Positions 1 to 47,550 of a DNA stretch of 64,000 nt are shown piece by piece. The stretch is from Flammeovirga sp. SJP92 (GTDB lineage Bacteria; Bacteroidota; Bacteroidia; Cytophagales; Flammeovirgaceae). The translations under genes were made by a program, and so were the position numbers. The number at the start of each line of letters is the position of its first letter. Within the stretch, counting starts at the first letter, position 1. The DNA is taken from the NCBI RefSeq assembly GCF_001583495.1, contig NZ_LQAQ01000032.1, positions 62,001 to 126,000 of the forward strand. The letters are read 5' to 3'. The notes beneath the pieces are model-generated. The model was given only the letters and a program-made list of their open reading frames with translations. It was not told the origin of the DNA and did not search any database.

Positions 1-373
1 ATGATCGGTGCATATGCTGTACATGAGCCGTTAGATGAACTTTACTATCACTTATTTTCCTAAGTTTAAGTGTAATGTTTGCAAGCTTTATATCTTGCTG
101 TAGACCATATTCAAAACCTTGATAAAATCTCACAAATAATGAAAAGTTGGACTGTTGTGGAAGATCAAAACCCCAATTACCATTGCTGTCTATAATATTT
201 CCTACAATCTGCATCCCCTCGTAAGGACTAATACTTTCTGCATCAATAACAGCAATAACTCTCTCCCCTGTGGTTTGATGAGATTGGAAATTGACCGAAA
301 AGTCTTGTGCTTGTACTTGAGTGAAAAACAACGGACCCATTATAAGTACTAGAATGAATAGTTTAGCTCTCAT
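1..373 (-). CDS. Secreted protein, 3' end beyond left edge (partial)
   Basis: An open frame of 124 codons starts with ATG at 373 and runs off the window with no stop. The N-terminus is a clear Sec signal peptide ending in QVQAQ, so the product is exported. The visible mature part is beta-rich (segments MQIVGNIIDSNGNW and FSLFVRFYQGFEYG) and contains no fibre cap, which would lie beyond the edge. Spacing of hydrophobic and glycine residues resembles the N-terminal body of the fibre gene at 11140-12069 and of the pseudogene at 1179-1535, so I infer it is another member of the fibre family. It is separated from the rest of the array by the IS200 wreck. Function unknown. Confidence 0.6.
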   Translation of the reverse strand, partial: MRAKLFILVLIMGPLFFTQVQAQDFSVNFQSHQTTGERVIAVIDAESISPYEGMQIVGNIIDSNGNWGFDLPQQSNFSLFVRFYQGFEYGLQQDIKLANITLKLRKISDSKVHLTAHVQHMHRS

Positions 374-693: not shown

Positions 694-1123
694 TCAAACC
701 TTTTTAAAACATATTTTAATATAGTTACGGTGAAGTTCCAAATAGTGGTAGACCATTTGATCAGCGGTTACATTATCTGTACTCCAAGCGCATACCCTCC
801 CATCCAAAAGTGCTTACCTCAATAACGTTTCCGTAAATTTGAAAACTCTTGTAGAAGTATTCGAAAGGTTCGGCCTTTCATTCGCTTTAGAATTTCACTG
901 AAACTTTTGCTTGGGGGATACTCAATATGAACATGCTCTTTATTGACTACTCCTTTCAATATTTCAATACCTTCAGTCTCACATATTTGAATGAGAAGAA
1001 ATCTACACCATTTTTGAATACCCCTTCCAAAACATGGTGTCGATACTTAATCACAATGACGATATGAACGGTTAATCGAGTAACTATATGATTCCCTTTT
1101 CTGTACTCAGTGTCATAATTCAC
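694..1123 (-). pseudogene. tnpA: IS200/IS605-family TnpA (Y1 transposase) remnant
   Basis: Translating the minus strand in three frames in turn recovers an almost full-length IS200-type TnpA. A GTG start at 1123 gives TEYRKGNHIVTRLTVHIV and IKYRHHVLEG. A shift gives the CRFLLIQICETEGIEILKGV segment and NKEHVHIEYPPS, with the HUH metal-binding motif HVH. Then come KRMKGRTFRILLQEF, RKRY, a stop where the family has Trp, and GKHFW. A second shift gives NVTADQMVYHYLELHRNYIK and the natural stop at 694. Two frameshifts and one nonsense codon mean it is dead. The span of about 143 codons equals the usual TnpA length, so nothing large is missing. No TnpB is present, consistent with an IS200-like element. 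Confidence 0.85.
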
Positions 1124-1174: not shown

Positions 1175-1186
1175 GGGTTTAAACCC
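1175..1186. repeat. 12-bp perfect palindrome at the IS/fibre junction
   Basis: GGGTTTAAACCC lies about 50 nt upstream of the tnpA start, where IS200-type elements carry a subterminal hairpin. The reading frame of the neighbouring fibre pseudogene stops inside it (TAA at 1181-1179). This suggests the palindrome belongs to the inserted element and that the insertion truncated the fibre gene. Basis is position only; the element end is not proven. Confidence 0.4.
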
Positions 1187-1535
1187 ATTTCTGAGACCAA
1201 TAAACTTCTAAATAAGAATATTTTCCATCATATGTTATCCTTGCCTCATTCCAATAGCCTGATGTTGAATTTTCAATAATATTAATTCCTCCATAATTAC
1301 TCCAACCTTTAAATCATGAGATTTCAACAAAATGTAGTGTACAGCAACTACCGGTAGTCATTATACTCACTTCTGAATATCCTCTTCCAGAAGGACTCTT
1401 GCTCATCGCTACTTTTTTCCAACCTGTAGTAGTTACGTTTGCTTTCACTACTGCTTCATTATCTAACTGCTGTCCCTTTTATATTCCAGTATAAAGGAGA
1501 CACATAAAAATTAGTATTATTCTAGCTTTTATCAT
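1179..1535 (-). pseudogene. Truncated fibre-family gene, N-terminal part
   Basis: Its ATG (1535-1533) overlaps the stop of the upstream fibre gene as ATGA, so it was once part of the operon. The frame begins with a signal-peptide-like MIKARIILIFMCLLYTG, then a TAA (probably from TAT or TAC), then GQQLDNEAVVKANVTTTGWK, a TGA after HFVEIS, and continues to GYWNEARITYDG and LEVYWSQKW before ending in the palindrome at 1175-1186. There is no cap or coiled coil. The beta-rich body resembles that of the gene at 11140-12069. Two internal stops plus 3' truncation by the IS200-type insertion make it a pseudogene. Confidence 0.7.
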
Positions 1536-2698
1536 TTCTCTTGTAATAGTTGATCAATTAGCTTTTGTTGTTTATATAATAAAGATTTTACCTCTTCAAT
1601 TTCTTTATCTTTGGCTTCTAAGCTTTTTATTTTCTTTTCCTGCTCAATAGTGTGTAAAGTCAATTCCTCGATCTTTTTCAATAAGATTAAATTCATTTCT
1701 GCCAAATGAAGTCCTTCCTCTTCAATCTGAGCTGCTGATTTTACTTCAGGTAAATGACTGTGCTTTTTAATATAGTTCTCTACATCTTCCAAAGACATCA
1801 TATGATAGTCTTCTTTGAAAACATAATCGGGTACTGTACCAGCATTAGCTGTAACTTTCACTTCTTGAGCATGTACTTTCCCCGCTATAACAAACTCTCC
1901 ATTTTTCTTGACTCCCCAAAGCCACTTTGAATTTGATTTAGTTGCTTTTAAAGCTGAACCATCAGGAATTGAATTACCTCCATTATCTAGAAATGAAGGA
2001 CCTAAGATTTGTTGATAAAGATAATCTTTCATAATTGGTGAATCACTTGGTAAGTTTGTAATACCATTAAAACTACCTGAAGTCACTTCCATAAACATAG
2101 TTGGATAAGGGCCTTTGGAATAAAAACCATATCCTTGATTTTTATAGTTCAAATAACTTCCAAATGAAGAGGTATAAGTGATATAATTACTTATCTGATT
2201 TGAAGCTCCATTTGTATAACAAGCTCCTGAATATTTATAATAGAAATTATTTTGATTCTCAAACATAGTACTCGATAAATTACCAAATAGTGTTATTGAG
2301 GTATTCTTATTTGTGGTGGGAGTTTTAAAGTTCAGACCTTTTGACTCATCTACAAGCAACAATTCTCCATTAGAATTTGTCAACATGAAATTATTCCAGG
2401 AGGTCCATAAATTATTTCCTTGATTTTTACTTCTTAATGCTGCTCTTTGGCCCTTATAGTCGAAAATCAATTGTGTGTGTCTACTAATATTACTTTCTGG
2501 CTTTAATCCTAACACTACTCCAGCATCAAAAATCCAAGAAGAAGGTGCATCACTCTCACTTGGAATAACATAAGCTCCATCTTGATACGATGAGGGTGCA
2601 TCATCTGAAATAGCATCTTTTCTGATGACTAACTGTGCGTAACTATTTGTAAAAAATAACAACACAAAAAGTGTCGATAAAAAAATTTTATTCATCAT
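1532..2698 (-). CDS. Secreted fibre-like protein, class A cap
   Basis: 388 residues. Signal peptide 1-22 (ending NSYAQ); a second ATG one codon in is an equally good start. Residues 70-110 look like a pyocin-knob domain of phage tail fibres (WTSW at 98-101 followed by a hydrophobic strand). Residues 274-353 are a class A cap (KVHAQEVKV, PDYVFKEDY, HLPEVKSA, EEGLHLAEMN, KKIEELT). The last 35 residues, rich in Lys/Glu/Gln, form a coiled coil. The start overlaps the end of the upstream gene by 11 nt, implying translational coupling. It is probably an exported, trimeric fibre; no T9SS tail is present. Cap function is unknown. Confidence 0.85.
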   Translation of the reverse strand: MMNKIFLSTLFVLLFFTNSYAQLVIRKDAISDDAPSSYQDGAYVIPSESDAPSSWIFDAGVVLGLKPESNISRHTQLIFDYKGQRAALRSKNQGNNLWTSWNNFMLTNSNGELLLVDESKGLNFKTPTTNKNTSITLFGNLSSTMFENQNNFYYKYSGACYTNGASNQISNYITYTSSFGSYLNYKNQGYGFYSKGPYPTMFMEVTSGSFNGITNLPSDSPIMKDYLYQQILGPSFLDNGGNSIPDGSALKATKSNSKWLWGVKKNGEFVIAGKVHAQEVKVTANAGTVPDYVFKEDYHMMSLEDVENYIKKHSHLPEVKSAAQIEEEGLHLAEMNLILLKKIEELTLHTIEQEKKIKSLEAKDKEIEEVKSLLYKQQKLIDQLLQEK

Positions 2699-3755
2699 TT
2701 TTTTTATTAATTATTTGTTTCAATATTTCAGCCTGTTTTTCTATTAGTTTTTGCTGTTGATCTAATTGCTTTTGTTGTTCTATTATATAAAGGGTCAACT
2801 CTTCTACTTTTTTTAGTAAAAGTAAGTTCATCTCTGCCAAATGAAGTCCTTCTTCTTCAATCTCTTTAGCTGACTTTACCTCAGGTAAATGACTGTATTC
2901 TTTAATGTATTTCTCAACATCAGCCAATGGCATCATTTTATAATCTTCTTTGAAAACATAATCGGGTACTGTGCCAGCTGATGCTGTGACTTTAACTTCC
3001 TGAGCGTGAATTTTACCTTTCACGGTTAGCCTTGAATCTGGAGAGCTAGTACCAATTCCTAAATACCCCTTATGATTTAATATCATAACTTCTTTGAGTT
3101 CTTTTACATTAGTATTCCTATCTATATCTAGCTCTGTCAGCCATCTAAAACCAAAATTACTACCTTCAAAAACGTTCATACGTGTGTAAACGTTGATACG
3201 TGCATAAGTATCTTTAGCCGATTCATCACTAGTTATTGCATTGAACCCTATAAAACCTGACCACTTATTAGAACTTCCTCCCCAATTATTCTCGTGAGTC
3301 CAACCCAAGTTCATCATGCTATTATTGATGCTTACCAGGCCACTATTATTTATTTTAAATAATTCTTGTAGTTTTCTTGAACCTGTATTACCTCCAAAAT
3401 CAGGGGCTTTTTCTTCTCCTAAAAAATGAAAGCCATAGTTATTTCCTTCAATCACTAGTCTATTGGTATAATTATTTGAACGGTAATAATATCCTTTAGG
3501 ATCGTTATCATTCCTATAAGCATTAAAGCCTATAAATCCAGTCCACTTATATGCACTTCCTCCCCAGTCGTTTTCATGTACCCAATCAAGATGTAGAAGT
3601 CCTATTCTGTTACTTGAATTGCCTATTGATAATTTTGCAGCTGGTGTTAGTGTAGAAATACCTATCTTTCCATTGTTACTAATTTGATTTTCCTGAGCAT
3701 AAAGAGAAGTATTTGTTATAAAAAGTACAGTCAAAATTAATTGCCATGATTTCAT
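2688..3755 (-). CDS. Secreted fibre-like protein with duplicated body, class A cap
   Basis: 355 residues with signal peptide 1-21 (TSLYAQ). The body consists of two tandem repeats of about 85 residues, each with a KW[TS]GFIGFNA core and ending in NYGFHFL or NFGFRWL, separated by a short linker. A GIGTSSPDSRL motif leads into a class A cap at 248-327 (PDYVFKEDY, HLPEVKSA, GLHLAEMN) and a Gln-rich coiled coil (328-355). It overlaps the next gene by 11 nt and lies 7 nt after the previous one. The internal duplication suggests the body grows by unequal recombination. The protein is likely exported; ligand unknown. Confidence 0.85.
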   Translation of the reverse strand: MKSWQLILTVLFITNTSLYAQENQISNNGKIGISTLTPAAKLSIGNSSNRIGLLHLDWVHENDWGGSAYKWTGFIGFNAYRNDNDPKGYYYRSNNYTNRLVIEGNNYGFHFLGEEKAPDFGGNTGSRKLQELFKINNSGLVSINNSMMNLGWTHENNWGGSSNKWSGFIGFNAITSDESAKDTYARINVYTRMNVFEGSNFGFRWLTELDIDRNTNVKELKEVMILNHKGYLGIGTSSPDSRLTVKGKIHAQEVKVTASAGTVPDYVFKEDYKMMPLADVEKYIKEYSHLPEVKSAKEIEEEGLHLAEMNLLLLKKVEELTLYIIEQQKQLDQQQKLIEKQAEILKQIINKKNDE

Positions 3756-3762
3756 AGTAATA

Positions 3763-4992
3763 TTATTTATTTTCTAGTTTAGTTATTCTTTCTAATAATG
3801 TTTCGATTAGTTTCTCTTGACGGTCTACTTTGTCCTTAAGATGATCTTGTTGATTCAAACGCTTTTCCTGCTCAATAGTGTGTAATGTCAATTCTTCAAT
3901 CTTCTTCAACAAAATCAGATTCATCTCTGCCAAATGAAGTCCTTCTTCTTCAATCTGAGTAGCTGATTTCACCTCAGGTAAATGACTGTATTCTTTAATG
4001 TATTTTTCAACATCAGCCAATGGCATCATTTTGTAATCCTCTTTGAAAACATAATCGGGTACTGTGCCAGCTGATGCTGTGACTTTAACTTCCTGAGCGT
4101 GAATTTTACCTTTTACAGTTAGCCTTGCATCTGGGGAAACTGTTCCGATACCAACATTACCTCCTCGGGGATTTAAAACAATATTTGATGTAACAGTATT
4201 ATGATCAACTGATTGAAAATAACTTACTCGATTTTCTGTATCCACACCAATTTGTAAATCTTGGTCATCCCCCCATATTTGAATAGGATGTTCAGAACTC
4301 CATTCTGAACCTTTAGCATCACCTTCTTGGACAATATGTAGTTTTGCTCTTGGACTTGAAATTCCAACGCCTAATTCCCCTTTAAAAGTAATATTCAGTA
4401 AATCTCTATTTAAATTACTAAACTTAAATTGTCCTTCATTACTATGTTTCTTAATTTCTAAACCTACATTATCAGAGCCATTTGAATAATTATTGAAAGT
4501 AGTATACCTAAGTCCATTATTATCAAGCCTTAATAATTCACTATTTGTTGTGTTAGAATTAATATGTAATTTAGATTGTGGTAAACTTGAACCAATACCA
4601 ATATTACCTTCTGAATCTATCACCATTCTATCTTTTAATACAGAATTCTTTGCTGTAGAAAATCTTAAATCAGCAGAATACCATTCACCATTTCCCCATT
4701 TAGTATTAGAAGAAATTCTTGATACCACTCCTAAATCATAATGTTTAGCAAAATCTATTGAACCTATAGAACCAGTAAAATTTTCAGCAGCCTTCCTTGA
4801 ACCCAGTCTAATAGTTGGATGATCTTTTGAAATATGGAGATCAGCTTCAAATTTAGATTCTGCTCCTATTCCCACTTTTCCTTCTTTATATAAAAGATCT
4901 GATTTTGCTCCTGATTCAGTTGTGATTTTTTCTTGTCCAAATACAACGAAGTTACAGATGCAAAATGAGACCGTTAGAATTACCTTTTTCAT
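3763..4992 (-). CDS. Secreted fibre-like protein, class A cap
   Basis: 409 residues. Signal peptide ends CNFVVFGQ. The body contains four VGIG-type turns (VGIGAESK, IGIGSSLPQSKL, LGVGISSPRAKL, VGIGTVSPDARL), the beta-helix or beta-prism motif usual in tail-fibre-like proteins. Class A cap at 296-375 and a coiled coil to 409. The ATG at 4992-4990 shares one base with the stop of the upstream gene (TAATG), a strong sign of a common transcript. The cap nucleotide sequence is nearly identical to that of the gene at 2688-3755, so this region has recently been copied or converted. Confidence 0.85.
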   Translation of the reverse strand: MKKVILTVSFCICNFVVFGQEKITTESGAKSDLLYKEGKVGIGAESKFEADLHISKDHPTIRLGSRKAAENFTGSIGSIDFAKHYDLGVVSRISSNTKWGNGEWYSADLRFSTAKNSVLKDRMVIDSEGNIGIGSSLPQSKLHINSNTTNSELLRLDNNGLRYTTFNNYSNGSDNVGLEIKKHSNEGQFKFSNLNRDLLNITFKGELGVGISSPRAKLHIVQEGDAKGSEWSSEHPIQIWGDDQDLQIGVDTENRVSYFQSVDHNTVTSNIVLNPRGGNVGIGTVSPDARLTVKGKIHAQEVKVTASAGTVPDYVFKEDYKMMPLADVEKYIKEYSHLPEVKSATQIEEEGLHLAEMNLILLKKIEELTLHTIEQEKRLNQQDHLKDKVDRQEKLIETLLERITKLENK

Positions 4993-6071
4993 TATTTATT
5001 TTCTTTAATTAACTTTTTGATTTCGTCGAATTCTTGTTGAAGAACTTCAAGTTTATTTATCTTTCTATTTTGTTCTTCAATTAGTTTTTGTTGTTCGATT
5101 GTATACAACGTCAATTCCTCTATCTTCCTCAACAACATCGCTTCTGTTTCTCCTACATTTACACCATTTTCTTCTACTTCTTTGGCTGAAGGAACATCTG
5201 GTAAATGTTTATATTCTTTGATATGAGCTTCCACTTCTGAGAGAGACTTTAAGTTATAATCATCTTCGAATACGTAGTCTGCCCATACATCAGTTTTCAC
5301 TTTTATTTCTTTAGAAATAATTCTACCGTCTACTTGTAATAAAGAGCCTGAGATATCATTTTTCAATTGCATACCGATAACTTCTTGGTTATTGGTATCT
5401 TTCGTAGCCCATTTCCAACCTCCTCTCCATCTTGGGATATAATATTTTACAATACTATTATCAGGAACATTATAAATGTTATTAATAGAACTTACTCCTG
5501 TTCCTAATGAAAAACTTACACTAGTACCACTTGCATAATGATTATGTAAGGACATTATAGTCCTAACAACACCATTTCCATCTTCAGACCCATCTGTGGT
5601 CCATTTCCAACCTCCTCTCCATCTACTGTAATGAAAATTAAACAAACCATTATCACTAAAATGAGTTGTAAATTTTCCGTCTCCAACACCGGACATATGC
5701 AATGTAGATCCTAATTTTAAATCATTTGTTTCGATTTTGTTTGAATTAAGAGTACCTTTTAATTCCAAATCACCAGTATACCCATCTAAAATCATAGAAT
5801 AAAAGTTTGGTTTAGAGGCAAATTGACCTGTTCCCCAATAGAAGTTGCCATTTAAATGAAACCCGAACATAAGCTCATTCACTGTTCTTGATTTAAATAC
5901 AAGTGCCGCATGATCTGGATGTGTAAATTGAATTGCATTATTAAAACCATTTACTGATCTTGTGTCATTTGTACCAGTAATTTCTAAGCTTTTATAGATT
6001 TTCTCTTGTCCAAAACAAGTAATAAGAGATAGAAATACACATGTAATAGTTAGTATAAGTTTATTCGTCAT
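4992..6071 (-). CDS. Secreted fibre-like protein, class B cap
   Basis: 359 residues from the ATG at 6071; a TTG two codons earlier is less likely. Signal peptide ends LITCFGQ. Two copies of a RWRGGWKW[AT]T element sit in the body, and there are few VGIG turns, so its fold differs from its neighbours. The last 105 residues hold a slightly divergent class B cap (VWADYVFEDDY, SLSEVEAHI, HLPDVPSAKEV, NVGETEAMLLRKIEELT) and a coiled coil that is also found behind caps of the other class (at 7020). It overlaps the following gene by 1 nt and the preceding gene by 11 nt. Confidence 0.83.
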   Translation of the reverse strand: MTNKLILTITCVFLSLITCFGQEKIYKSLEITGTNDTRSVNGFNNAIQFTHPDHAALVFKSRTVNELMFGFHLNGNFYWGTGQFASKPNFYSMILDGYTGDLELKGTLNSNKIETNDLKLGSTLHMSGVGDGKFTTHFSDNGLFNFHYSRWRGGWKWTTDGSEDGNGVVRTIMSLHNHYASGTSVSFSLGTGVSSINNIYNVPDNSIVKYYIPRWRGGWKWATKDTNNQEVIGMQLKNDISGSLLQVDGRIISKEIKVKTDVWADYVFEDDYNLKSLSEVEAHIKEYKHLPDVPSAKEVEENGVNVGETEAMLLRKIEELTLYTIEQQKLIEEQNRKINKLEVLQQEFDEIKKLIKENK

Positions 6072-7020
6072 GACCAATTTTTTTTAATAGTTCGTTAATA
6101 AGTTTTTCCTGTTTATCAAGCCTTTTCTCTTGCTCAATAGTATATAAAGTCAATTCCTCAATCTTCCTCAATAACATTGCTTCAGTCTCCCCAACATTCA
6201 CACCATTTTCTTCTACTTCTTTAGCTGATGGTACATCTGGTAAATGTTTATGCTCTTTGATATGGGCTTCTACTTCTGAAAGGGATTTTAGGTTGTAATC
6301 TTCATCGAAAACATAGTCTGCCCAACCTGTGTATACCTTTACTTCTTCGGCTCTTATTTTTCCATTTACAGATAGCTTATAACCTGATGTAACGAATGTA
6401 TTAATACCTATAGACCCATCAGGATTAATCCTCATTGCATTTATATTATCTGCCCCATTTGAAGTTTTAAAATCTAAACCTATAAATGTACTTGCTATAC
6501 CTCTAAATGCAGAAATGGAAGATTGATAATTCATATTATCAGTTGTAAATAAAATACCGTGACTTACATTATTGTTAGTGTTATTATTGGAAGAAATTAA
6601 AAGGTTACCATTATAAACATGTAATTTCTCTAATGGGTTAGATCTACCAATGCCAATGAAACCGTTGTAATTGATATGCATCGCTTCAAGATTTCCTACT
6701 CTATCAGATGTGAAAAATTTCATTCCTATAAGATTACTACCTTCACCTCTATAACCTAATATAGAAGAGTAATATGGCAAATTGTCAGTTGAAAATTTCA
6801 CACCTGTATGTATTGAAGAATTCGTAGACTGACCTGACGATAACAAAATATTACCATTTTGTACTCGAATTTTTTCTGTAGGGGAATTAGTTCCTATTCC
6901 TAATTTACCATCTCTGTAAATTAAATCACTAATAGCACGATTTTCAGTCATTAACTTTTCCTGCCCAAATAATAATGTACTATAGATACTAATCGTTGCT
7001 GTTATAATTAGTTTTTTCAT
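6061..7020 (-). CDS. Secreted fibre-like protein, class B cap
   Basis: 319 residues, one of the shortest members. Signal peptide ends TLLFGQ. The body has two similar halves, each with an ILLSS or LLISS strand and an SAFRG or LGYRG segment, linked by GIGTNSPTEK, GIGRSNPLEK and a SIGINTF turn. Class B cap at 221-297 (GWADYVFDEDY, HLPDVPSAKEV, GVNVGETEAMLLRK) and a short coiled coil ending at 319. The stop overlaps the next gene, and the ATG at 7020 shares a base with the stop of the gene upstream. Product likely exported; role inferred only from family architecture. Confidence 0.84.
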   Translation of the reverse strand: MKKLIITATISIYSTLLFGQEKLMTENRAISDLIYRDGKLGIGTNSPTEKIRVQNGNILLSSGQSTNSSIHTGVKFSTDNLPYYSSILGYRGEGSNLIGMKFFTSDRVGNLEAMHINYNGFIGIGRSNPLEKLHVYNGNLLISSNNNTNNNVSHGILFTTDNMNYQSSISAFRGIASTFIGLDFKTSNGADNINAMRINPDGSIGINTFVTSGYKLSVNGKIRAEEVKVYTGWADYVFDEDYNLKSLSEVEAHIKEHKHLPDVPSAKEVEENGVNVGETEAMLLRKIEELTLYTIEQEKRLDKQEKLINELLKKIGHDE

Positions 7021-8465
7021 TATTTATTATTAATTAGCTCTTTGATGGCTTCAATTTCACGTTGCAATGCTTCAAACTTATCTATTTTTTTATTCTGTTC
7101 TTCAATTAGTTTTTGTTGCTCAATGGTATATAACGTCAATTCCTCAACCTTCTTCAATAAAAGTAAATTCATCTCTGCTAAATGAAGCCCTTCCTCCTCT
7201 ATTTGACTTGCTGATTTCACTTCTGGCAAATGACTATGTTTTTTAATGTATCTTTCTACCTCTTCTAATGACATCATATTGTAATCTTCTTTAAAAACAT
7301 AATCAGGTGTTTCTCCTGCCGATACTGTAACTTTCACTTCTTGGGCATGAATTTTCCCTTTGACCGTTAGTTTTGAATCAGGTGCATCTGTCCCGATTCC
7401 TACTTTCCCATCAAAATAAGCATTGGCAGTTCTTGTATCAAACACAATACCCGCTCTATTATTAAATGAACTATGAAAACCTATACCATACCAAGAAGAT
7501 ATACCAACATTATATCTATCGAAAGAAGCAGCATCTGCGGTTCCACTTACAAAATCACCATGAATTGAAATATCATCTCTCGCCCCACTGTTATTTTCAC
7601 CTTTACCTTCAACCCTTACAGAAGCTCTATCAGCACCGTTATGTTGGACATGCAGGTTTGCTGAAGGGCTTTTTCTGCCGATTCCAACATACCCTTTACT
7701 ATCAATACTAACTCGCTCAATACCATTAGTAGAAAGCCCCAAAAAGCCTCCATATGTACCTGACCCACGATAAAATGAAATAAAACCATTTTTTTCATCA
7801 CTCGCGTATTTTAATCCTAATCGAAAGGACTCAGTATTGATTGGCTGTGTTGTGATTGTTTTAGCATAAAGTGAAAAATTTGATTCATCTGCATTGGCTA
7901 AAATAGTACCATATGAGTTGTCCCCGTTATTCACATGTAGTGTTGCACTTGGTGTTGTTATACCTATCCCAACTTGACCATTACCTAGTATAGTAAACTC
8001 TGGGGTGTGATTAGCTGTTCCATCAGGATTAATTATCGATGAAGATCGACTTATATAAAAACTTTTATTGGGGGAGCCTCCATAATATAAATGACCAATA
8101 TGCCAATTAAGTTGAGAACCTAATTCTCCAAAACCTATAGTTGCCAAGTCCTTACCTTCAGAACCTCTGTATAAATTAATACTTTTGTTCCCTCTTGTAT
8201 TTCCAGCAGGAAGTAAAAATATATCTGAATAAAAATCCGAACGTTTTGATCCTGAATTAAATTCAACAAAAGATGTATGGGGTGTACCTGACATATCCTT
8301 TATTCTAAAAGAACTTCCTGAGCCAAATAATTGAATATCCATCCAATCTCCACTATTTGTCTGGATTCTATTAAACCCTCTTATATCCCCATTATTAGTA
8401 TCAATGGTTTGGGCATTTAATGAAGTTGAAAATATTATTAATAAAATGAAATGTATCTTTTTCAT
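7020..8465 (-). CDS. Secreted fibre-like protein, class A cap (longest member)
   Basis: 481 residues, the largest fibre in the window. Signal peptide ends TSLNAQ. The body carries three GIG turns with SP or AP (GIGITTPSATL, GIGRKSPSANL, GIGTDAPDSKL). Class A cap at 371-450 and a coiled coil whose sequence (LIEEQNKKIDK) is shared with class B proteins at 4992 and 12088. About 400 nt, from the end of the body through the cap, are almost identical to the adjacent gene at 8517, a recent copying event. A 51-nt gap separates it from that gene. Confidence 0.85.
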   Translation of the reverse strand: MKKIHFILLIIFSTSLNAQTIDTNNGDIRGFNRIQTNSGDWMDIQLFGSGSSFRIKDMSGTPHTSFVEFNSGSKRSDFYSDIFLLPAGNTRGNKSINLYRGSEGKDLATIGFGELGSQLNWHIGHLYYGGSPNKSFYISRSSSIINPDGTANHTPEFTILGNGQVGIGITTPSATLHVNNGDNSYGTILANADESNFSLYAKTITTQPINTESFRLGLKYASDEKNGFISFYRGSGTYGGFLGLSTNGIERVSIDSKGYVGIGRKSPSANLHVQHNGADRASVRVEGKGENNSGARDDISIHGDFVSGTADAASFDRYNVGISSWYGIGFHSSFNNRAGIVFDTRTANAYFDGKVGIGTDAPDSKLTVKGKIHAQEVKVTVSAGETPDYVFKEDYNMMSLEEVERYIKKHSHLPEVKSASQIEEEGLHLAEMNLLLLKKVEELTLYTIEQQKLIEEQNKKIDKFEALQREIEAIKELINNK

Positions 8466-8516
8466 GCTTGTTTGATCGTTTAGAGTTTGATATATTTTTC
8501 AGGTAAAAAATTGGTC

Positions 8517-9623
8517 CTATTTTTTTTCTAATTGATTTACTTTATTTATAAGTAATTCTACTGTTTCATAAAGATTTGAGATCTCTTTTTCTTGATTTAT
8601 AGTATGAATTGTCAATTCCTCAACCTTCTTCAATAAAAGTAAATTCATCTCTGCTAAATGAAGCCCTTCCTCCTCTATTTGACTTGCTGATTTCACTTCT
8701 GGCAAATGACTATGTTTTTTAATGTACCTTTCTACCTCTTCTAATGACATCATATTGTAATCTTCTTTAAAAACATAATCAGGTGTTTCTCCTGCCGATA
8801 CTGTAACTTTCACTTCTTGGGCATGAATTTTCCCTTTGACAGTTAGTTTTGAATCAGGTGTATCTGTCCCGATTCCTACTTTCCCATCAAAATAAGCATT
8901 GGCAGTTCTTGTATCAAACACAATACCCGCTCTATTATTAAATGAACTATGAAAACCTATACCATACCAAGAAGATATACCAACATTATATCTATCGAAA
9001 GAAGCCGCATCTGCAGTTCCGCTTACAAAATCACCATGAATATAAATGTCATTTTGAGTACCACTATTATTCTCACCTTTACCGTGTACTCTAATTTTAG
9101 CTTGACTTCCATCACTTTCTTGAACATGTAGTTTTGCGGTTGGGCGAGTAGTTCCAATTCCTAATCTTCCTTGTGCATTTAAAACCATTACTTTATCTGT
9201 ATAATTTTCCCAAGAAAAAAGAGGTCTATTAACAACTCTTTGTCCTGCACCTGAAGTATGTGACAATCGAGCATTAAAACTAATTAAAGCATTATCATCT
9301 GTATCTAAATTAGGATTAGCCATTCCCATAATACCTAATGCAACTCTATTATCTGAAGAACGAGCTCCTTTTATTAATGGGATAAACTGTGACGCAGCGC
9401 CAGTATAATTTGTGATTAAAAAATAATCATCAATGGCATCTGAAACCTTCATTTTTAGCAAATTTTCTGTTTCTCCCACATTAGAAAGAATAGTCAATTT
9501 TGCCCCACTAGTACTCAGTGTACCTATACCTACATTACCCTCTGTTCCTATTTTATTTGTTTGCCCATAACCTACTAGAGTAAAGACACTCATAAATAAG
9601 ATAATTAGTAAAAATTTATTCAT
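8517..9623 (-). CDS. Secreted fibre-like protein, class A cap
   Basis: 368 residues. Signal peptide ends LVGYGQ. The N-terminal 150 residues are unlike the neighbour at 7020, but from about residue 170 onward (the segment with SGTADAASFDRYNVGISS) through the class A cap (265-344) the two are nearly identical. They diverge again in the coiled coil (EKEISNLYETVELL). The block boundaries fall at module edges, so this looks like module exchange or gene conversion. The gene is followed by a 51-nt gap and preceded by a 10-nt gap, consistent with one transcript. Confidence 0.85.
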   Translation of the reverse strand: MNKFLLIILFMSVFTLVGYGQTNKIGTEGNVGIGTLSTSGAKLTILSNVGETENLLKMKVSDAIDDYFLITNYTGAASQFIPLIKGARSSDNRVALGIMGMANPNLDTDDNALISFNARLSHTSGAGQRVVNRPLFSWENYTDKVMVLNAQGRLGIGTTRPTAKLHVQESDGSQAKIRVHGKGENNSGTQNDIYIHGDFVSGTADAASFDRYNVGISSWYGIGFHSSFNNRAGIVFDTRTANAYFDGKVGIGTDTPDSKLTVKGKIHAQEVKVTVSAGETPDYVFKEDYNMMSLEEVERYIKKHSHLPEVKSASQIEEEGLHLAEMNLLLLKKVEELTIHTINQEKEISNLYETVELLINKVNQLEKK

Positions 9624-9633
9624 AATAATTAGT

Positions 9634-11043
9634 TTACTTATTTAATAAAGATTCGATTTTTGAAAGACGCTCTTCCAATGCATCATTACGTTCTTTTTCT
9701 TTTTCAAGGTTTCTAATTTGCTTGCTCTGATATTCTATTTGTTTTTGCTGTTCAATAGTATACAAAGTCAACTCCTCAATCTTCCTCAACAACATCGCTT
9801 CAGTCTCCCCAACATTCACCCCATTTTCTTCTACTTCTTTGGCGGATGGCACATCTGGTAAGTGTTTATGTTCTTTGATATGGGCTTCTACTTCTGAAAG
9901 GGATTTTAGGTTGTAATCTTCTTCGAAAACATAATCTGCCCAGCCTGTATATACTTTTACTTCTTCGGCTCTGATTTTTCCTTTTACTGATAACCTAAAA
10001 TCAGTAGTTTCATTAGTGCCTATTCCAACATTCCCATAGTGATCTATTATCATTCGTTCATGAAAACCATTATCATCTCCGTCTGTATGATACCTAGTTT
10101 TAAAAGAAAGACCTCCCCTAAAAGTTGCTGATTCATTTGTACGGAAATCAATTCCTTCTATTTTCCCTAAAGCGATTGTTGATGATAAAGTTATATTTGG
10201 CTTGACATTACTTGCAAATTGATTAGTTTTAATCTGAATACTTTCATTTGTCTTGATTATACCGTCCACATCTAATTTTGCACTAGGTTTAGATATTCCT
10301 ATTCCAACATCACCACTCCCAGAAATTCGCATCCTTTCATCATATGATTTTTCCCCTTCATAATTTCTAGTATAGAATAACATATCTACTCTATTACTCC
10401 ATGAACTTGTAGACTGTGCAAAGATTCCGACAGATTTTTGGCTTTCCTTATGCATATTATCACTGTAATCTAAACTTAATGAAAGCCCTACCATTCTTTG
10501 ATCATCTGTGCCTGATGAATTGGGTGCCCTTACAATCAATTTATTTGCATTATGTGCTTGATATTCTTGAGTAGTTGCCACATCAATTGGAGCGGTAACC
10601 GATGAACTTCCAATTCCTAATCCAGTGGAGATTCGAACTTGTCCACTTGTATTTTCACTTAACACTTTTACCCAATCAGTCCAATTGTTAGAATAGCGTC
10701 CTCTCATATACATTCCTTCATTGATTGCATTAGATGCACCGTAAGGGATTGCAAATTGAGTTATATTACCTGTCCCATTTTTAGATATATATTCAAAGTT
10801 GAATGGATGAAAATAATAATTCGATTTTTTAGGACCATTAGGTGCATCACCTCTTAGCAAGGTAAGCCCGTTTCCTGATTTAGTATTAGACTTATCATTC
10901 CAATCTAATACTCCATTAACATGTTCAGCACCAAAACCGCCAATAATTCGTCCTTCAACTGTTAAATCTCCTTTAATAGTTTCTTGTCCAAAAATCACAA
11001 AACTATAAATAGAGATGATTGAGGTTAATATTAGTTTTTTCAT
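9634..11043 (-). CDS. Secreted fibre-like protein with knob-like domain, class B cap
   Basis: 469 residues. Signal peptide ends FVIFGQ. Residues 55-130 look like a phage pyocin-knob module (MYMRGRYSNNWTDWVKVLSE, with WTDW at 121-124), a carbohydrate-contacting domain in R-pyocin fibres. GIGISKPSAKL and GIGTNETTDF turns follow. Class B cap at 356-432, then a 37-residue coiled coil ending LSKIESLLNK. The gap to the gene upstream is 96 nt, the largest between neighbouring fibres except where the barrel remnant lies. Its upstream stretch shares a TTTGAAAG-type motif with that of the gene at 13415, possibly an internal promoter or leader. Confidence 0.84.
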   Translation of the reverse strand: MKKLILTSIISIYSFVIFGQETIKGDLTVEGRIIGGFGAEHVNGVLDWNDKSNTKSGNGLTLLRGDAPNGPKKSNYYFHPFNFEYISKNGTGNITQFAIPYGASNAINEGMYMRGRYSNNWTDWVKVLSENTSGQVRISTGLGIGSSSVTAPIDVATTQEYQAHNANKLIVRAPNSSGTDDQRMVGLSLSLDYSDNMHKESQKSVGIFAQSTSSWSNRVDMLFYTRNYEGEKSYDERMRISGSGDVGIGISKPSAKLDVDGIIKTNESIQIKTNQFASNVKPNITLSSTIALGKIEGIDFRTNESATFRGGLSFKTRYHTDGDDNGFHERMIIDHYGNVGIGTNETTDFRLSVKGKIRAEEVKVYTGWADYVFEEDYNLKSLSEVEAHIKEHKHLPDVPSAKEVEENGVNVGETEAMLLRKIEELTLYTIEQQKQIEYQSKQIRNLEKEKERNDALEERLSKIESLLNK

Positions 11044-11139
11044 AATTTCTTTTTATCTTTTTTTGTTTGAAAGTTTTTAACAAGCTGCTCAATATCACTT
11101 TATTCTTCAAACTAAGGTTGAATAGTTTATGGAATCTTA

Positions 11140-12069
11140 CTATTCCTGATTCTTTTCTAGTTTTGAAATTCTTTCTAATAATTGATAAATAATTTTATCC
11201 TGATTATCTACTTTATCTAACGACTCCTTTAAGCTTTTGATTTCTTTTTCTTGCTCAATAGTGTATAACGTCAACTCCTCAATCTTCCTCAATAACATCG
11301 CTTCTGTCTCCCCAACATTCACACCATTTTCTTCTACCTCTTTGGCTGAGGGAACATCTGGCAGGTGTTTATATTCTTTGATATGAGCTTCTACTTCTGA
11401 AAGAGATTTTAGGTGGTAATCTTCTTCGAAAACATAGTCTGCCCAGCCTGTATATACTTTTACTTCTTCGGCTCTAACCTTGCCTCCAACAGATAATTGA
11501 TAACCTGATATATTGGAAGTATTCAGTCCAATTTCTCCATGTGTACCAGTATAAGTAATGATTTTGGGAACTATGGTTGAAGTTATATCTTCAGCTCCTT
11601 CTAAACTATAAACTTCAGGTTTAAAATACTTCACCTCTTGAAACAATGTTTTAGAATTAATCATTGAAGATTTAATCGAAAGAGATGGATATATATCAGT
11701 AATACGTAATACAATATCATATCCGCCATCAGCAGATTGATAAAACTTAACTTGATATTTACTATGACTTCCACCTCTTCTTTCAAGATTAACTTTCAAA
11801 CCATCCCTAGAAGAAATATAATAAGTTGTTAAACCTAAATTTGAAGCATGCCAATTACCTCCAAATATTTCTAATCTCAATTTATGAAAATTATTACCAT
11901 CATTTTTTGGTACATATCCCACTAAGTATTCAGAACCTACTACATTAACAGAACCCAATACAATTTGATACTCCTGAGCATAAGATTTTAATGAAATACA
12001 TAAACTAATAAACAGTATTAAGGAGATGGATAATACATATTTAGTAGCTTGCTTAAATTTTCTTTTCAT
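11140..12069 (-). CDS. Secreted fibre-like protein with atypical body, class B cap
   Basis: 309 residues. The N-terminus is longer and more basic (MKRKFKQATKY) before a hydrophobic stretch ending LKSYAQ; signal peptide about 1-32. The body lacks VGIGT turns apart from a weak GEIGLNTSNISG, and looks like a single beta-sandwich (FHKLRLEIFGGNW, YQVKFYQSADGG). The same type of body seems to occur in the partial gene at 1-373 and the pseudogene at 1179-1535. Class B cap at 197-273 and coiled coil to 309. It lies 18 nt after the upstream gene. It shows that unrelated bodies are joined to the same cap. Confidence 0.82.
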   Translation of the reverse strand: MKRKFKQATKYVLSISLILFISLCISLKSYAQEYQIVLGSVNVVGSEYLVGYVPKNDGNNFHKLRLEIFGGNWHASNLGLTTYYISSRDGLKVNLERRGGSHSKYQVKFYQSADGGYDIVLRITDIYPSLSIKSSMINSKTLFQEVKYFKPEVYSLEGAEDITSTIVPKIITYTGTHGEIGLNTSNISGYQLSVGGKVRAEEVKVYTGWADYVFEEDYHLKSLSEVEAHIKEYKHLPDVPSAKEVEENGVNVGETEAMLLRKIEELTLYTIEQEKEIKSLKESLDKVDNQDKIIYQLLERISKLEKNQE

Positions 12070-12087
12070 AATGACTGCGTATTAACT

Positions 12088-13269
12088 TTATTTATTTTTA
12101 ATTAGTTCTTTAATCGTTTCTATTTCACTTTGTAGCTTTTCTAGCTTACTTATTTTTTCATTCTGCTCTTCAATTAGTTTTTGCTGTTCAATTGTGTACA
12201 AAGTCAATTCCTCAATCTTCCTCAACAACATCGCTTCTGTCTCCCCAACATTAACACCATTTTCTTCTACTTCTTTAGCTGATGGAACATCTGGAAGGTG
12301 TTTATATTCTTTAATATGAGCTTCTACTTCTGAAAGAGATTTTAGGTGGTAATCTTCTTCGAAAACATAGTCTGCCCAGCCTGTGTATACTTTTACTTCT
12401 TCAGCTCTGATTTTTCCTTTTACGGATAATTTGAAATCAGAAAGGTTTGTTGTCCCAATACCAACATGCCCTCTATAATCCATTCTCATAGCTTCCGTTC
12501 CATTTAAGATAAAAGCTAATGGGTTATTGGTGCCTGTTGTTGAGATCACTTGTCTTCCTGATGGTCCTTCTCCATAAATATTGATAGTTCTAGTTGCTAA
12601 ATCTTGAATAGACAAACCTGATGTGTTTGTTTCTCCTGATTGTTTGACAAATAGTTGTGATTTAGGAGCATTTGTACCTATACCCACTTTTCCTGTCACT
12701 GCCAATGAATAACCATACTGATTTGTTTCATTACCAATGTTTAAACTTTGGTAGATATAAGCATTTCCAGACATATCAACTGTAAACCTACTTTTCCACT
12801 CCGAATCTTTCCAATAAGTAAAACCAACATCAAATAAATCGTGATTTGATACTCCATCATCACCAATATTTACTCTAAAAGAAGTTTTATCTGCTTCTCG
12901 ATTGTATCTTGCTATCCATGTCGGGTCACTGTTGGAATGACCGCCTCTTAATACTAACTTATTGCCATAAGTATCGGTATCACTCCCAGTTACATGTCTG
13001 TAATGACCTAGTTCTATATCTCCAAATGTGATAACCTTATTCACAGCTAAACTTGTGAAAGGGCGATCCGAATCTGAGTTCCAAAAGTTAATTAAGTTAT
13101 TATTACCATCATAAAAGAGCTTAACATAAGAATTATCATCATATTGGCTATTATATGGAAATATTGTAAAATAAGAACTTTTGTGAGACAAAATACCTGA
13201 ATAATTTGTTTGTCCAAATACTGCTAAACTACATAAACAAACAGTAGCAGTTAGAATTAATTTTTTCAT
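12088..13269 (-). CDS. Secreted fibre-like protein, class B cap, close relative of 39773
   Basis: 393 residues. Signal peptide ends SLAVFGQ. The body has a GDIELGHYRHVTGS region and an ARYNREADKTSFRVNIGDDG segment that also occurs in the fibre at 38703 (RYNESRENTHLRINIGDDG). It then has a GLSIQDLATRTINIYGEG module that is nearly identical to both copies in the fibre at 39773. Class B cap at 286-362, followed by a coiled coil shared with 4992 and 7020. Directly upstream (13282-13401) is the 3' end of a beta-barrel gene, the same order as in the second locus, so this gene probably arrived with that block. Confidence 0.85.
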   Translation of the reverse strand: MKKLILTATVCLCSLAVFGQTNYSGILSHKSSYFTIFPYNSQYDDNSYVKLFYDGNNNLINFWNSDSDRPFTSLAVNKVITFGDIELGHYRHVTGSDTDTYGNKLVLRGGHSNSDPTWIARYNREADKTSFRVNIGDDGVSNHDLFDVGFTYWKDSEWKSRFTVDMSGNAYIYQSLNIGNETNQYGYSLAVTGKVGIGTNAPKSQLFVKQSGETNTSGLSIQDLATRTINIYGEGPSGRQVISTTGTNNPLAFILNGTEAMRMDYRGHVGIGTTNLSDFKLSVKGKIRAEEVKVYTGWADYVFEEDYHLKSLSEVEAHIKEYKHLPDVPSAKEVEENGVNVGETEAMLLRKIEELTLYTIEQQKLIEEQNEKISKLEKLQSEIETIKELIKNK

Positions 13270-13281
13270 TAGAATAGTTAA

Positions 13282-13401
13282 TTATTTATCCCCAATCCCT
13301 CTAAACCCAATTCTAAACACCCTAGGGCCATTCTGTAAAGGGTTTTCTTCTGTTTCATAGACAAAAGATTAGTGCAGTTGGAAGTTGAAGCAAAAGAGAT
13401 T
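13282..13401 (-). pseudogene. 3' remnant of the beta-barrel gene (paralogue of 40996-42663)
   Basis: The minus strand reads FNFQLH, a stop, SFVYETEENPLQNGPRVF and RIGFRGIGDK, then TAA at 13284-13282. The intact protein at 40996 ends INFQLLYSFVYETEDN, PLQNSPWVF and RIGFNGIGDK. So about 37 codons of the C-terminus survive here with one nonsense codon, and the rest is gone; the fibre gene at 13415 now abuts its 5' side. It records a duplicated barrel-plus-fibre block that was later overwritten. Confidence 0.85.
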
Positions 13402-13414
13402 TCAGTTTATTAGT

Positions 13415-14632
13415 TTACTTTTTTTGAATTGATTGAATCATTTCTTTTAAAATATTAAGCTCATTTTTTAAATCTTGAACTTCTTTTAATTCATTTTTCA
13501 AATTGGAAATTTCTTTCTCTTGCTCAATAGTATACAAAGTCAACTCCTCAACCTTCTTCAACAAAAGTAAATTCATCTCAGCCAGATGAAGTCCTTCTTC
13601 CTCTATTTGACTTGCTGATTTTACCTCAGGTAAATGTCTGTGTAATTGAATATATTTTTCAATTTCTTCTAAAGACATAAGATGATAGTCCTCTTTAAAT
13701 ACATAATCAGGTGTTTCTCCTGCCGATACTGTTACCTTTACTTCTTGTGCATGAATCTTTCCTGCTACTGTTAGCCTTGAATCAGGAGTAGAAGTTCCAA
13801 TACCTACTTTTCCATTACTTTGAACTTTAAACCTTACATTTTGATCATTGTCTTCACATTGCAAAATGATGGAACTATTATCATTTGATGACCTACCATA
13901 ACCATTTTGTATTAGTAATCCTTGAGACTTACCGCCTGTATTCTTTATTTTAGTAGTCCAAAAATTATTAATTGATTTATTAATATTCAATACGGCTTCA
14001 GGAGAATCAGTTCCTATCCCTACGTTACCCTCTTTTTTAATCGTCATCGCACGATTTAGATATCCTGACTGAGATTGAGTATAATCATATCCAACAGCTA
14101 TGTATGCATCTCCATTTAAGGCTCCAAAAATGGTGGCTGTATTTTCTCTTTCATTTCTGATACGAAATCCTCTAGCCCATCCACCATCTGAATTGGTTGT
14201 TACTTCTACTCCACTAGGATATGTCTTGAGAGAAGTTAATGGAGAAACTATAACTTCAAACTTTTCTTTTGGGGATGTTGTACCAATACCTACTCTACCT
14301 TCCTTATCTTCCGATAATATCTTATACCATGAACTCCATTTTTCTGTAGAACCACTAGGATTATAATTTCTGTAATATAAATTATCTTTACTTGCTGAAT
14401 ATTGGTTTGTCATTATTTCAAATAATCGGTATCCACTATTGTCTGCTTTAATGGTTAGTTTAGTGCCATATGGATATTTCCAATTAAAGTTTGCATTACC
14501 ACTACCAGGTCCGCCCTGATAATAAACCCCATTTTCCATAGTATTGGGATCAACATCTTCTTTATATTGTTGTTGTCCGTAAACTATATAGTTACAAAAA
14601 CAGCACACTGCCATTAGCATTAGTTTTTTCAT
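13415..14632 (-). CDS. Secreted fibre-like protein with knob-like domain, class A cap; first gene of array
   Basis: 405 residues. Signal peptide ends NYIVYGQ. Residues 35-110 resemble a pyocin knob (LYYRNYNPSGSTEKWSSWYK, WSSW at 99-102). Three GIGT turns follow. Class A cap at 292-371. The final 34 residues and the 3' flank are nearly identical to those of the class B fibre at 39773, so the tail has been exchanged between cap classes. No further intact fibre gene lies upstream, so the promoter of the whole array should be just upstream of 14632, in an AT-rich leader. Confidence 0.85.
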   Translation of the reverse strand: MKKLMLMAVCCFCNYIVYGQQQYKEDVDPNTMENGVYYQGGPGSGNANFNWKYPYGTKLTIKADNSGYRLFEIMTNQYSASKDNLYYRNYNPSGSTEKWSSWYKILSEDKEGRVGIGTTSPKEKFEVIVSPLTSLKTYPSGVEVTTNSDGGWARGFRIRNERENTATIFGALNGDAYIAVGYDYTQSQSGYLNRAMTIKKEGNVGIGTDSPEAVLNINKSINNFWTTKIKNTGGKSQGLLIQNGYGRSSNDNSSIILQCEDNDQNVRFKVQSNGKVGIGTSTPDSRLTVAGKIHAQEVKVTVSAGETPDYVFKEDYHLMSLEEIEKYIQLHRHLPEVKSASQIEEEGLHLAEMNLLLLKKVEELTLYTIEQEKEISNLKNELKEVQDLKNELNILKEMIQSIQKK

Positions 14633-18053: not shown

Positions 18054-18998
18054 TTAGTCTTGTTCGAGTTTTTTAATTCTCTCTAAATAAATCTTATTTA
18101 GTTCATTTTGTTTGTCCAATTCCTTTCTCACTTCAATTAAGTAAAGCGTTAATTCTTCAACCTTTCTTAATAAAACAGCATCACTTTCTCCCAAATTCAC
18201 CCCATCTTCTTCAATTTCTTTGGCAGATGGAACATCGGGAAGATGTTTATATTTTTTGATATGGGCTTCAACTTCTGAAAGTGGTTTTAGAGCATAACTG
18301 TCTTCAAAAACATAGTCTGGCCAATTTTCATTTGTTACTTTCACTTCTTTTGCTTTGATATTCCCATTTACAGCTAACATCGCATCAGGTGTCGTAGTTC
18401 CTATTCCAACCTTTCCATGTTGTGTAATTCTAAAACGATGTTTGCCTCCTGTAAAAATATCAGCACCAAAATGGCCAGACATATAAGCATTGTTACCATT
18501 AGCTGATGAACCAGCATCAAAATTGTGAAAGCCAAAACCGTAGTGGTGTATGTATTCTTCATCAAATAAGAAATCGTCATTTATTTGACAGGTTATTCCT
18601 GATGATTTACCTTCCTTATCATTCGCACTAGGAATAACCAAAACTCCATTAACGTATGAGTTGCCATTTACAAAAAGATTGTAGTTTGAATTATTAGATA
18701 ATGTATTTATCATCAACCTTCCTTCTTTTGCAAACATGCTGTGAGCAGATCCACTACCATTACCAAAAAAAATATGATTTCCTTTGTAATAATTAAAGTG
18801 AAGGTCATTCCCATCCCAAACATCTATATGCGCATTTGCATTAGAATATTTTGTGATTCGAATTTTAGATTCTGAAAAATTATCTGTATTTCCATTTACA
18901 AATACATAAGCATGACCAGAAGCGTTACCTAGTTCAGTAACTTGAGCAATTGTCTTAAATGCACTCAGCACTAAGATGAGAAAAAATAAAGGTTTCAT
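18054..18998 (-). CDS. Solitary secreted fibre-like protein, class B-like cap
   Basis: 314 residues. Signal peptide ends KTIAQ. The body contains VFVNGNTDNFSESK, a GNGSGSAHSMF segment and one GIGTTTPDAML turn. The cap (215-280) is of class B type but divergent: NWPDYVFEDSY, PLSEVEAHI, HLPDVPSAKEIEEDGVNLGE and LLRKVEELTLYLIE. The coiled coil is also different. It stands alone, outside both arrays, and its cap has not been homogenised with theirs. This fits the idea that cap identity inside the arrays is kept by gene conversion. Confidence 0.84.
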   Translation of the reverse strand: MKPLFFLILVLSAFKTIAQVTELGNASGHAYVFVNGNTDNFSESKIRITKYSNANAHIDVWDGNDLHFNYYKGNHIFFGNGSGSAHSMFAKEGRLMINTLSNNSNYNLFVNGNSYVNGVLVIPSANDKEGKSSGITCQINDDFLFDEEYIHHYGFGFHNFDAGSSANGNNAYMSGHFGADIFTGGKHRFRITQHGKVGIGTTTPDAMLAVNGNIKAKEVKVTNENWPDYVFEDSYALKPLSEVEAHIKKYKHLPDVPSAKEIEEDGVNLGESDAVLLRKVEELTLYLIEVRKELDKQNELNKIYLERIKKLEQD

Positions 18999-39749: not shown

Positions 39750-39772
39750 AATATATATTTCAGTTTATTAGT

Positions 39773-40988: not shown

Positions 40989-40995
40989 ATACCTA

Positions 40996-42663: not shown

Positions 42664-42856
42664 TTTTTGATGTTTGCTTTTTATCATCTTGTGTTATAAG
42701 TCAAAGACTTAATCCATAGGTAAGTTCCGAGTGATACCAGTTAACACTCTGAACAGTGGGAAGTACACATAACAGTTGTTCGATTTATGGCGTAAATATA
42801 CTACAATTTTTGTTGAGAAGTTGAAGTTTTCAAATCACAAATAGTAAGAAAAAAAT

Positions 42857-47545: not shown

Positions 47546-47550
47546 CTAAT
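47409..47550. repeat. 142-bp element with 20-bp inverted repeats
   Basis: AATAGAGTTTATCACGGTTT (47409-47428) faces AAACCGTGATAAAGTCTAAT (47531-47550), 18 of 20 matching. The right arm contains the stop codon (TAG, 47548-47546) of the lipoprotein gene. MITE-like; unrelated in sequence to the element at 37408. Confidence 0.65.

What the first reader, a model, noticed from the sequence alone, without database searches (positions are those of the whole stretch)
1179..14632. Operon-like array of modular secreted fibre proteins
Eleven intact genes plus a pseudogene lie head to tail with 1-17 nt overlaps or short gaps. Each combines an own signal peptide, a private body, one of two cap classes (A: PDYVFKEDY / HLPEVKSA / GLHLAEMN; B: WADYVFEEDY / HLPDVPSA / GVNVGETEAMLL) and a coiled-coil tail. 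In order of transcription the caps run A, B, B, B, A, A, B, B, A, A, A. So many secreted fibres on one transcript suggests hetero-oligomeric fibres or a variable surface repertoire. The cap is common in Bacteroidetes proteins but, to my knowledge, uncharacterised.
Basis: partly seen in the sequence, partly recalled or inferred. Interest (0 to 1): 0.78.

Follow-up and report, generated by a model that had tools for sequence, protein, structure and literature searches.

The report
Gene array of modular secreted fibres
A bacterium carries sixteen neighbouring genes for exported, phage-tail-like fibre proteins that share an undescribed end piece but differ elsewhere, and relatives of these genes in other bacteria often stand in front of large RHS proteins and type II secretion genes, which suggests exchangeable adhesive fibres serving a secreted RHS system.

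Summary
Bodies average 27% identity, caps 66%; tails are shared between cap classes. The cap matched nothing in Pfam, NCBIfam or the PDB; its model is confident (pLDDT 93.6). The adjoining VGIGT module weakly resembles Bdellovibrio MAT adhesive fibres. One flank carries many cap genes here, 3 in one congener, 0 in another.

The main new result is what capped fibres travel with. In other genomes they lie upstream, on the same strand, of DUF6443 RHS genes: 22 of 59 within 20 kb (1.5 expected); a secreted-protein control gave 4 of 150 (4.2 expected). On a Persicobacter plasmid 13 fibre genes run into an RHS pair; on a Haliovirga (Fusobacteriota) plasmid a type II secretion operon, 5 capped fibres and an RHS gene are co-linear. 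The window holds its own fibre/RHS cassette (37577-54203). This genome lacks T2SS E and F matches, so export here is unknown. An adhesive repertoire is the likeliest reading; trimer formation, co-transcription and binding are inferred, not shown.

The parts
1..373 (-). C-terminal part of fibre gene a5 (365 aa, class A cap; whole gene C32:61276-62373)
822..1046 (-). piece of a decayed IS200-like transposase
   Evidence: Y1_Tnp E 3.6e-10, position
1179..1535 (-). fibre pseudogene, 5' part only, in-frame stops, no cap
1532..2698 (-). fibre g1, 388 aa, cap A
2688..3755 (-). fibre g2, 355 aa, cap A
   Evidence: Phage_T4_gp36 3.3e-7
3763..4992 (-). fibre g3, 409 aa, cap A
   Evidence: Phage_T4_gp36 4.2e-6
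4992..6077 (-). fibre g4, 361 aa, cap B (TTG start as listed)
6061..7020 (-). fibre g5, 319 aa, cap B
7020..8465 (-). fibre g6, 481 aa, cap A; shares 498 nt at 94.8% with g7
   Evidence: Phage_T4_gp36 1.6e-40
8517..9623 (-). fibre g7, 368 aa, cap A
   Evidence: Phage_T4_gp36 1.4e-48
9634..11043 (-). fibre g8, 469 aa, cap B
11140..12069 (-). fibre g9, 309 aa, cap B; relative at 74% in congener G005
12088..13269 (-). fibre g10, 393 aa, cap B; its C-terminal 139 aa were modelled
13415..14632 (-). fibre g11, 405 aa, cap A; tail 94% identical (150 nt) to that of 39773-40912
18054..18998 (-). separate capped fibre s1, 314 aa, class B
37577..38713 (-). capped fibre r1, 378 aa, class 'other', second cassette
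38703..39749 (-). capped fibre r2, 348 aa, class B, second cassette
39773..40912 (-). capped fibre r3, 379 aa, class B, second cassette
40996..42687 (-). p563, beta-rich secreted or outer-membrane-like protein by inspection; relatives beside cap genes in G003 and at three loci of G009
   Evidence: no Pfam match; model uninformative, pLDDT 40
43264..46884 (-). p1206, RHS-like partner; several homologues carry an RHS repeat at the C-terminus
47546..48211 (-). p221, short lipoprotein-like ORF of unknown role
   Evidence: sequence
48204..54203 (-). 1999-aa RHS protein with DUF6443
   Evidence: DUF6443 7.3e-37

Best explanation
The array encodes a repertoire of Sec-exported fibre proteins built like phage tail fibres and Bdellovibrio MAT fibres. 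Each has its own body, a beta module (VGIGT..P...L.V), a shared helical cap and a coiled-coil tail. The cap and tail most likely make three chains start together and fold in register (inferred), doing the job that S74 or other end domains do in other fibres. The bodies most likely bind different surface targets (inferred). Shown by comparison: capped fibres belong to a recurrent gene set with two RHS proteins (p1206-like and DUF6443) and, in many genomes, a type II secretion system; the window has such a set at 37577-54203. The 16-gene array is a local expansion of the fibre part without RHS genes, diversified by exchange of bodies and tails between copies. How the fibres cross the outer membrane in this T2SS-less genome is unknown; p563 or the type IX system are candidates only.
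For: 16 intact co-directional genes. Phage_T4_gp36 over cut-off in 5 of 11 window fibres. Cap model pLDDT 93.6 with a 52-residue C-terminal helix; the first 10 of 18 Foldseek rows are Bdellovibrio MAT fibres, over the VGIGT module only. Mosaics: g11 (A) and r3 (B) tails 94% over 150 nt; g6/g7 94.8% over 498 nt; cap identity does not predict tail identity (rho 0.03). Gene set: 22 of 59 DUF6443 places within 20 kb of a cap against 1.54 expected, 21 same strand, 20 with the cap upstream; 3 of 3 in this genome; control Por_Secre_tail 4 of 150 against 4.17; genome co-occurrence 28 against 9.5 of 326; 14 of 14 RHS genes in named loci on the strand of the nearest cap. Persicobacter plasmid: 13 fibres, then p1206-like, then RHS; T2SS genes on the same plasmid. 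Haliovirga plasmid: T2SS, 5 capped fibres, RHS, one strand. T2SSF linkage 8 of 14 within 25 kb against 0.41.
Against: Trimerisation, surface position, binding and co-transcription are not shown. The Foldseek likeness to MAT fibres is weak (best E 0.12, 36 columns; no VIA match with Z>=2 among 32 chains). The large array itself has no RHS gene nearby (about 37 kb to the DUF6443 domain). 53 of 79 named loci show none of the partners in the DNA held. At genome level cap and T2SSF co-occur less than expected (16 against 27.5, p 0.001), and this genome has neither T2SSE nor T2SSF. Body identity of 27% is near what global alignment of unrelated proteins gives, so common descent of bodies is not shown. 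Genomes in the counts are not independent.
Confidence: 0.6

Rival explanations
1. The 16 proteins are subunits of one hetero-oligomeric fibre or mat, made together from one transcript, not alternative adhesins.
For: Near-contiguous co-directional genes, two main cap classes interleaved, similar tails that could pair.
Against: Array size differs widely: one flank has 3 cap genes in G005 and none found in G004; in 79 named loci the longest run is 1 in 49 of them and up to 10. A fixed multi-subunit machine should keep its parts.
Confidence: 0.15
2. The cap is a sorting or anchoring signal (as the type IX C-terminal domain is) and only secondarily a folding domain.
For: It is the most conserved part, sits at the C-terminal end, and occurs beside secretion genes; the conserved end would be the anchor if polarity follows MAT logic.
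Against: It occurs in genomes with T2SSF and without it, in Fusobacteriota and in an alphaproteobacterial plasmid, so no single exporter fits; the model is a helix pair leading into a long helix, as expected of a trimerising end.
Confidence: 0.2
3. A phase- or antigenically variable surface locus: recombination among copies changes which fibre is displayed.
For: Mosaic tails and body pieces, a pseudogene in the array.
Against: All copies have their own start and signal-like sequence and look expressible; no recombinase, invertible segment or single expression site was found in the ORFs read; only species-level, not strain-level, comparison was possible.
Confidence: 0.15
4. Remnant of a prophage or of a phage-tail-like injection particle.
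For: T4 gp36 and PHROG tail-fibre matches to the VGIGT modules.
Against: Signal-like start in 16 of 16; no cap match in 50,697 phage records (class B cap query); no Pfam tail, head or integrase match among the 20 window ORFs scanned around it (the window has further ORFs that were not scanned).
Confidence: 0.03

Closest known systems
Mosaic adhesive trimer (MAT) fibres of Bdellovibrio bacteriovorus (PMC10769870)
   Same: Large paralogous sets of exported phage-like fibres with a shared end and exchanged ends; capping-loop motif (V-G-G/N-x-x-x-P-x-x-x-L type) matches VGIGT..P...L; best PDB matches by sequence and fold.
   Different: Polarity is reversed: MATs keep about 130 aa after the signal peptide and vary at the C-terminus; here the C-terminus is kept. 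Proteins are 286-481 aa, not about 1,000. No S74 domain in the cap; clustered with RHS genes instead of dispersed (dispersal of MAT genes inferred from their locus numbers).
Phage T4 gp36 / tail-fibre repeats (PF03903)
   Same: VGIGT repeat module, 5 of 11 window fibres over cut-off.
   Different: Cellular, with signal-like starts, own cap; not among phage structural genes.
S74 intramolecular chaperone proteins (PF13884)
   Same: C-terminal end domain after a VGIGT module, leading into a coiled coil; present as separate proteins in 25 of 38 relatives, one in this genome.
   Different: Cap core does not align with S74 core beyond controls; no SDxxxK motif in the cap (sequences).
RHS polymorphic proteins (DUF6443, RHS_repeat)
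   Same: Partner genes on the same strand, usually just downstream of fibres.
   Different: Fibres are separate proteins, not part of the RHS chain; fibre-RHS pairing did not turn up in the searches made.
Bacteroidetes-type T2SS of Cytophaga hutchinsonii (PMC5553014)
   Same: Same kind of divergent T2SS clusters hold cap genes in several genomes; its mutants adhere less to cellulose (passages).
   Different: No T2SS E or F match in the window's genome; whether C. hutchinsonii has cap proteins was not tested.

Membership tests
MAT fibres | signal peptide followed by conserved ~130-aa N-terminal domain | tested here: not met
   N-terminal bodies average 27% identity and share no conserved block
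MAT fibres | beta-helix capping-loop motif | tested here: met
   VGIGT..P...L.V in the model aligns with Bd2439 at 1.4 A over 36 columns, 39% identity, but E 0.12
MAT fibres | trimer, surface display | not testable with these tools
   only monomer models are offered
Phage_T4_gp36 (PF03903) | score over Pfam cut-off | tested here: met
   5 of 11 window fibres; the other 6 not
Peptidase_S74 | Pfam match and SDxxxK dyad | tested here: not met
   no PF13884 match in 108 caps; core profile comparison 0.9% probability, reversed control scores higher, 16 of 150 shuffles as good (only 7 S74 sequences)
Type IX secretion substrate | Por_Secre_tail or other C-terminal sorting domain | tested here: not met
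   no such Pfam match in the 11 window fibres
Type II secretion substrate | T2SS in the same genome | tested here: not met
   0 T2SSF and 0 T2SSE matches in this genome; secretin not searched. Met in several other genomes by gene order only
Fibre-RHS cassette (described here) | capped fibre(s), p1206-like and DUF6443 RHS on one strand | tested here: met
   window 37577-54203; the 16-gene array itself lacks the RHS genes

The most novel reading that the evidence does not exclude
A previously unnamed fibre-RHS system, spread through Bacteroidota and into Fusobacteriota, in which arrays of up to 13-16 exchangeable capped trimeric fibres give binding range to an RHS protein pair that a dedicated T2SS (or a substitute in T2SS-less genomes) brings to the cell surface. 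The cap is a new trimerising domain, and array expansion is the way such bacteria widen their range of partners or prey.
Probability: 0.3. Interest if true: 0.85.

Novelty: new variant of a known kind. Interest (0 to 1): 0.6.

Why it matters
A common protein end domain (61 of 326 sampled genomes) has no family entry in the libraries searched, and its genes mark a gene set that ties fibres, RHS proteins and type II secretion together. If the fibres are adhesins, this is a cellular counterpart of phage host-range repertoires with reversed polarity to the Bdellovibrio MAT fibres, and it gives Bacteroidota T2SS clusters, whose cargo is poorly known, a concrete candidate cargo to test.

Tried and rejected
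T2SS as the exporter in this genome: rejected, no T2SSE or T2SSF match. Cap as a degenerate S74 domain: a first full-length profile comparison looked good (89.8%) but was carried by the shared VGIGT module and the coil; core against core it failed its controls. Co-occurrence of cap with T2SSF at genome level: opposite to expectation, so only physical linkage is claimed. p563 as a demonstrated outer-membrane barrel: the model is too poor (pLDDT 40). PDB relatives of p1206 and of the RHS protein: none. Bacteroidota-type promoter pattern (recalled motif): 2 hits on the array strand against 8 on the other, no use. Rfam and tRNA scans of the window: nothing. Phage origin: no cap in phage records. 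Literature: cap strings 0 papers; DUF6443 in none of the 20 papers listed; one paper with T2SS, RHS repeat, Bacteroidetes and gene cluster together, seen in the listing only; 0 for the two plasmid hosts.

Limits of counts. One search scored at most 14 candidates per genome and its list of places was cut, so cap places are incomplete. For one search the DUF6443 places of G244, G248, G260 and G358 (cap-positive, but cap places not printed), those of cap-free genomes, and two short fragments in G123 were left out; extra cap places known were used for the home genome only. The control used the 150 printed of 672 Por_Secre_tail matches in 12 genomes, which were the genomes that showed the RHS linkage; in those 12 genomes the RHS count is 22 of 36. 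The T2SSF linkage used the 14 places printed for genomes with printed cap places; G167, G260 and G288 were left out. The S74 alignment held 7 of 24 fetched loci.
Full report
What is there. The eleven genes are as described, with gaps from -17 to 145 nt. The same strand continues past the window start: one gene straddles it and four more follow, so the array is 16 intact genes at C32:56798-76632 of an unnamed 8.49-Mb genome that is probably Bacteroidota (96 Por_Secre_tail matches; all 16 starts have [AGS]Q, in line with the Bacteroidetes Q-rule, PMC5837995 and PMC10653852, listing and abstract starts only). The runs of 5 and 11 are separated by 1158 nt holding the 5' part of a fibre pseudogene and a decayed IS200-like transposase. 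The genome has 30 cap matches at E<=1e-3, two of which are pieces of one locus on C73.

The proteins. Within the 16, caps average 66% identity (47-96%), bodies 27% (19-51%), tails 37%. Phage_T4_gp36 is over its cut-off in 5 of 11 window fibres and PHROG tail-fibre families match the VGIGT modules. The cap has no Pfam match in any of 108 diverse members, no NCBIfam match in 10 proteins and no PDB relative by sequence. The model of the end of 12088-13269, with 108 aligned relatives, has mean pLDDT 93.6 and shows beta elements in the VGIGT module, two short helices and one helix over residues 87-138. Foldseek against the PDB finds only weak matches (none at E<=0.001), but the first ten rows are all Bdellovibrio MAT fibres, over the VGIGT module; VIA-align found nothing at Z>=2 among 32 chains. 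The cap itself therefore has no known structural relative in this search, and it is not shown to be S74.

Shuffling. At DNA level the tail of 13415-14632 (class A) is 94% identical over 150 nt to that of 39773-40912 (class B), 25 kb away; 7020-8465 and 8517-9623 share 498 nt at 94.8%, including 242 nt of body, and then part on both sides; other A/B pairs share tails at 72-79%. Cap identity predicts body identity poorly (rho 0.18) and tail identity not at all (rho 0.03); pairs are not independent.

Relatives. 17 of 38 relatives have the cap. The window-side flank (AraC, MarC) carries 3 cap genes in G005 and none in the stretch fetched from G004; the tdh side has no cap in any of the 8 congeners' fetched stretches, some of which end at contig ends. 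So the array is a lineage-specific expansion. Of 5 fibre genes read in G005 and G003, one keeps body and cap (74%), one matches end to end at 46%, and 3 match only over the C-terminal part.

What capped fibres travel with. In 79 named loci (best 80 of at least 576 confirmed stretches), 26 have one or more of these in the DNA held: T2SS genes in 11, RHS in 12, p1206-like in 15, an S8 peptidase in 6; 53 have none. T2SS identity was confirmed by Pfam: T2SSE 7.6e-126, T2SSF 9.1e-43. Fourteen of 14 RHS genes lie on the strand of the nearest cap gene, 10 with the cap upstream. In 326 genomes of the phylum, 61 have the cap, 51 have DUF6443, 28 both against 9.5 expected. Of 59 DUF6443 places in 24 genomes, 22 lie within 20 kb of a cap (1.54 expected), 21 on the same strand and 20 with the cap upstream. 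A secreted-protein control gave 4 of 150 (4.17 expected). In the window's genome all 3 DUF6443 genes are within 12.2 kb of a cap. In G009, three separate loci have cap genes, a p563-like gene, a p1206-like gene and (where the stretch reaches it, two of three) RHS, on one strand.

Two plasmids make the unit plain. Persicobacter sp. JZB09 plasmid 6 has 13 consecutive capped fibre genes with gaps of at most 83 nt, a 98-aa ORF, a 1207-aa p1206-like gene and a 1174-aa RHS-like gene; then 4 more fibres, a T2SS gene set (T2SSE 2.7e-124, secretin 2.7e-35, T2SSF 1.9e-43), one more fibre, and a second p1206-like and RHS pair. Haliovirga abyssi (Fusobacteriota) plasmid pHIC has T2SS genes, 5 capped fibres, three further genes and an RHS gene on one strand.

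Against a simple T2SS story: this genome has no T2SSE or T2SSF match, and over the phylum cap and T2SSF co-occur less than expected (16 against 27.5), though where both are printed they are close (8 of 14 within 25 kb, 0.41 expected). So the fibre belongs with RHS more generally than with T2SS, and lineages appear to differ in exporter (inference).

Mechanism. Shown: gene order, mosaics, linkage, module likeness. Inferred: trimer formation nucleated by cap and coil, surface display, binding by the bodies, service to the RHS proteins. The MAT fibres (abstract, discussion and passages of PMC10769870 read) are the closest worked example of such a repertoire; the reversed polarity here means this is not a member of that family as defined there. 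C. hutchinsonii T2SS mutants adhere less to cellulose (passages of PMC5553014), which fits adhesive cargo but was not linked to cap proteins.

Verdict. Real, under-described, and larger than reported. The cap as an unregistered domain and the fibre-RHS linkage are the parts worth following.

Noticed in passing
G000:C73:30308-30546: A cap gene near the C73 RHS gene matches in two overlapping pieces in different frames: a frameshift or an assembly error.
   Followed up: no
window 15376-17379: 667-aa alpha/beta-hydrolase-like protein next to the array; only sub-threshold Pfam matches; its end looks like a type IX sorting domain by eye.
   Followed up: no
window 33836-37144: 1102-aa protein with a Sortilin-Vps10 match (E 7.9e-40).
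   Followed up: no
L144:10317-12275 and similar loci: An S8 subtilase with a type IX sorting domain lies just downstream of single cap genes in several named loci, a second recurrent partner.
   Followed up: partly
L214 (Leisingera sp. M527 plasmid) 5026-6252: A cap protein in an alphaproteobacterium, beside polysaccharide genes: probable transfer between phyla.
   Followed up: partly
L100 (Arcticibacter pallidicorallinus): 16 cap places in 20 kb, followed by T2SS genes.
   Followed up: partly
L073, L078, L101: Cap genes in records titled Pelagicoccus, Opitutales and Uabimicrobium; L073 has 4 caps and then an RHS-like gene.
   Followed up: partly
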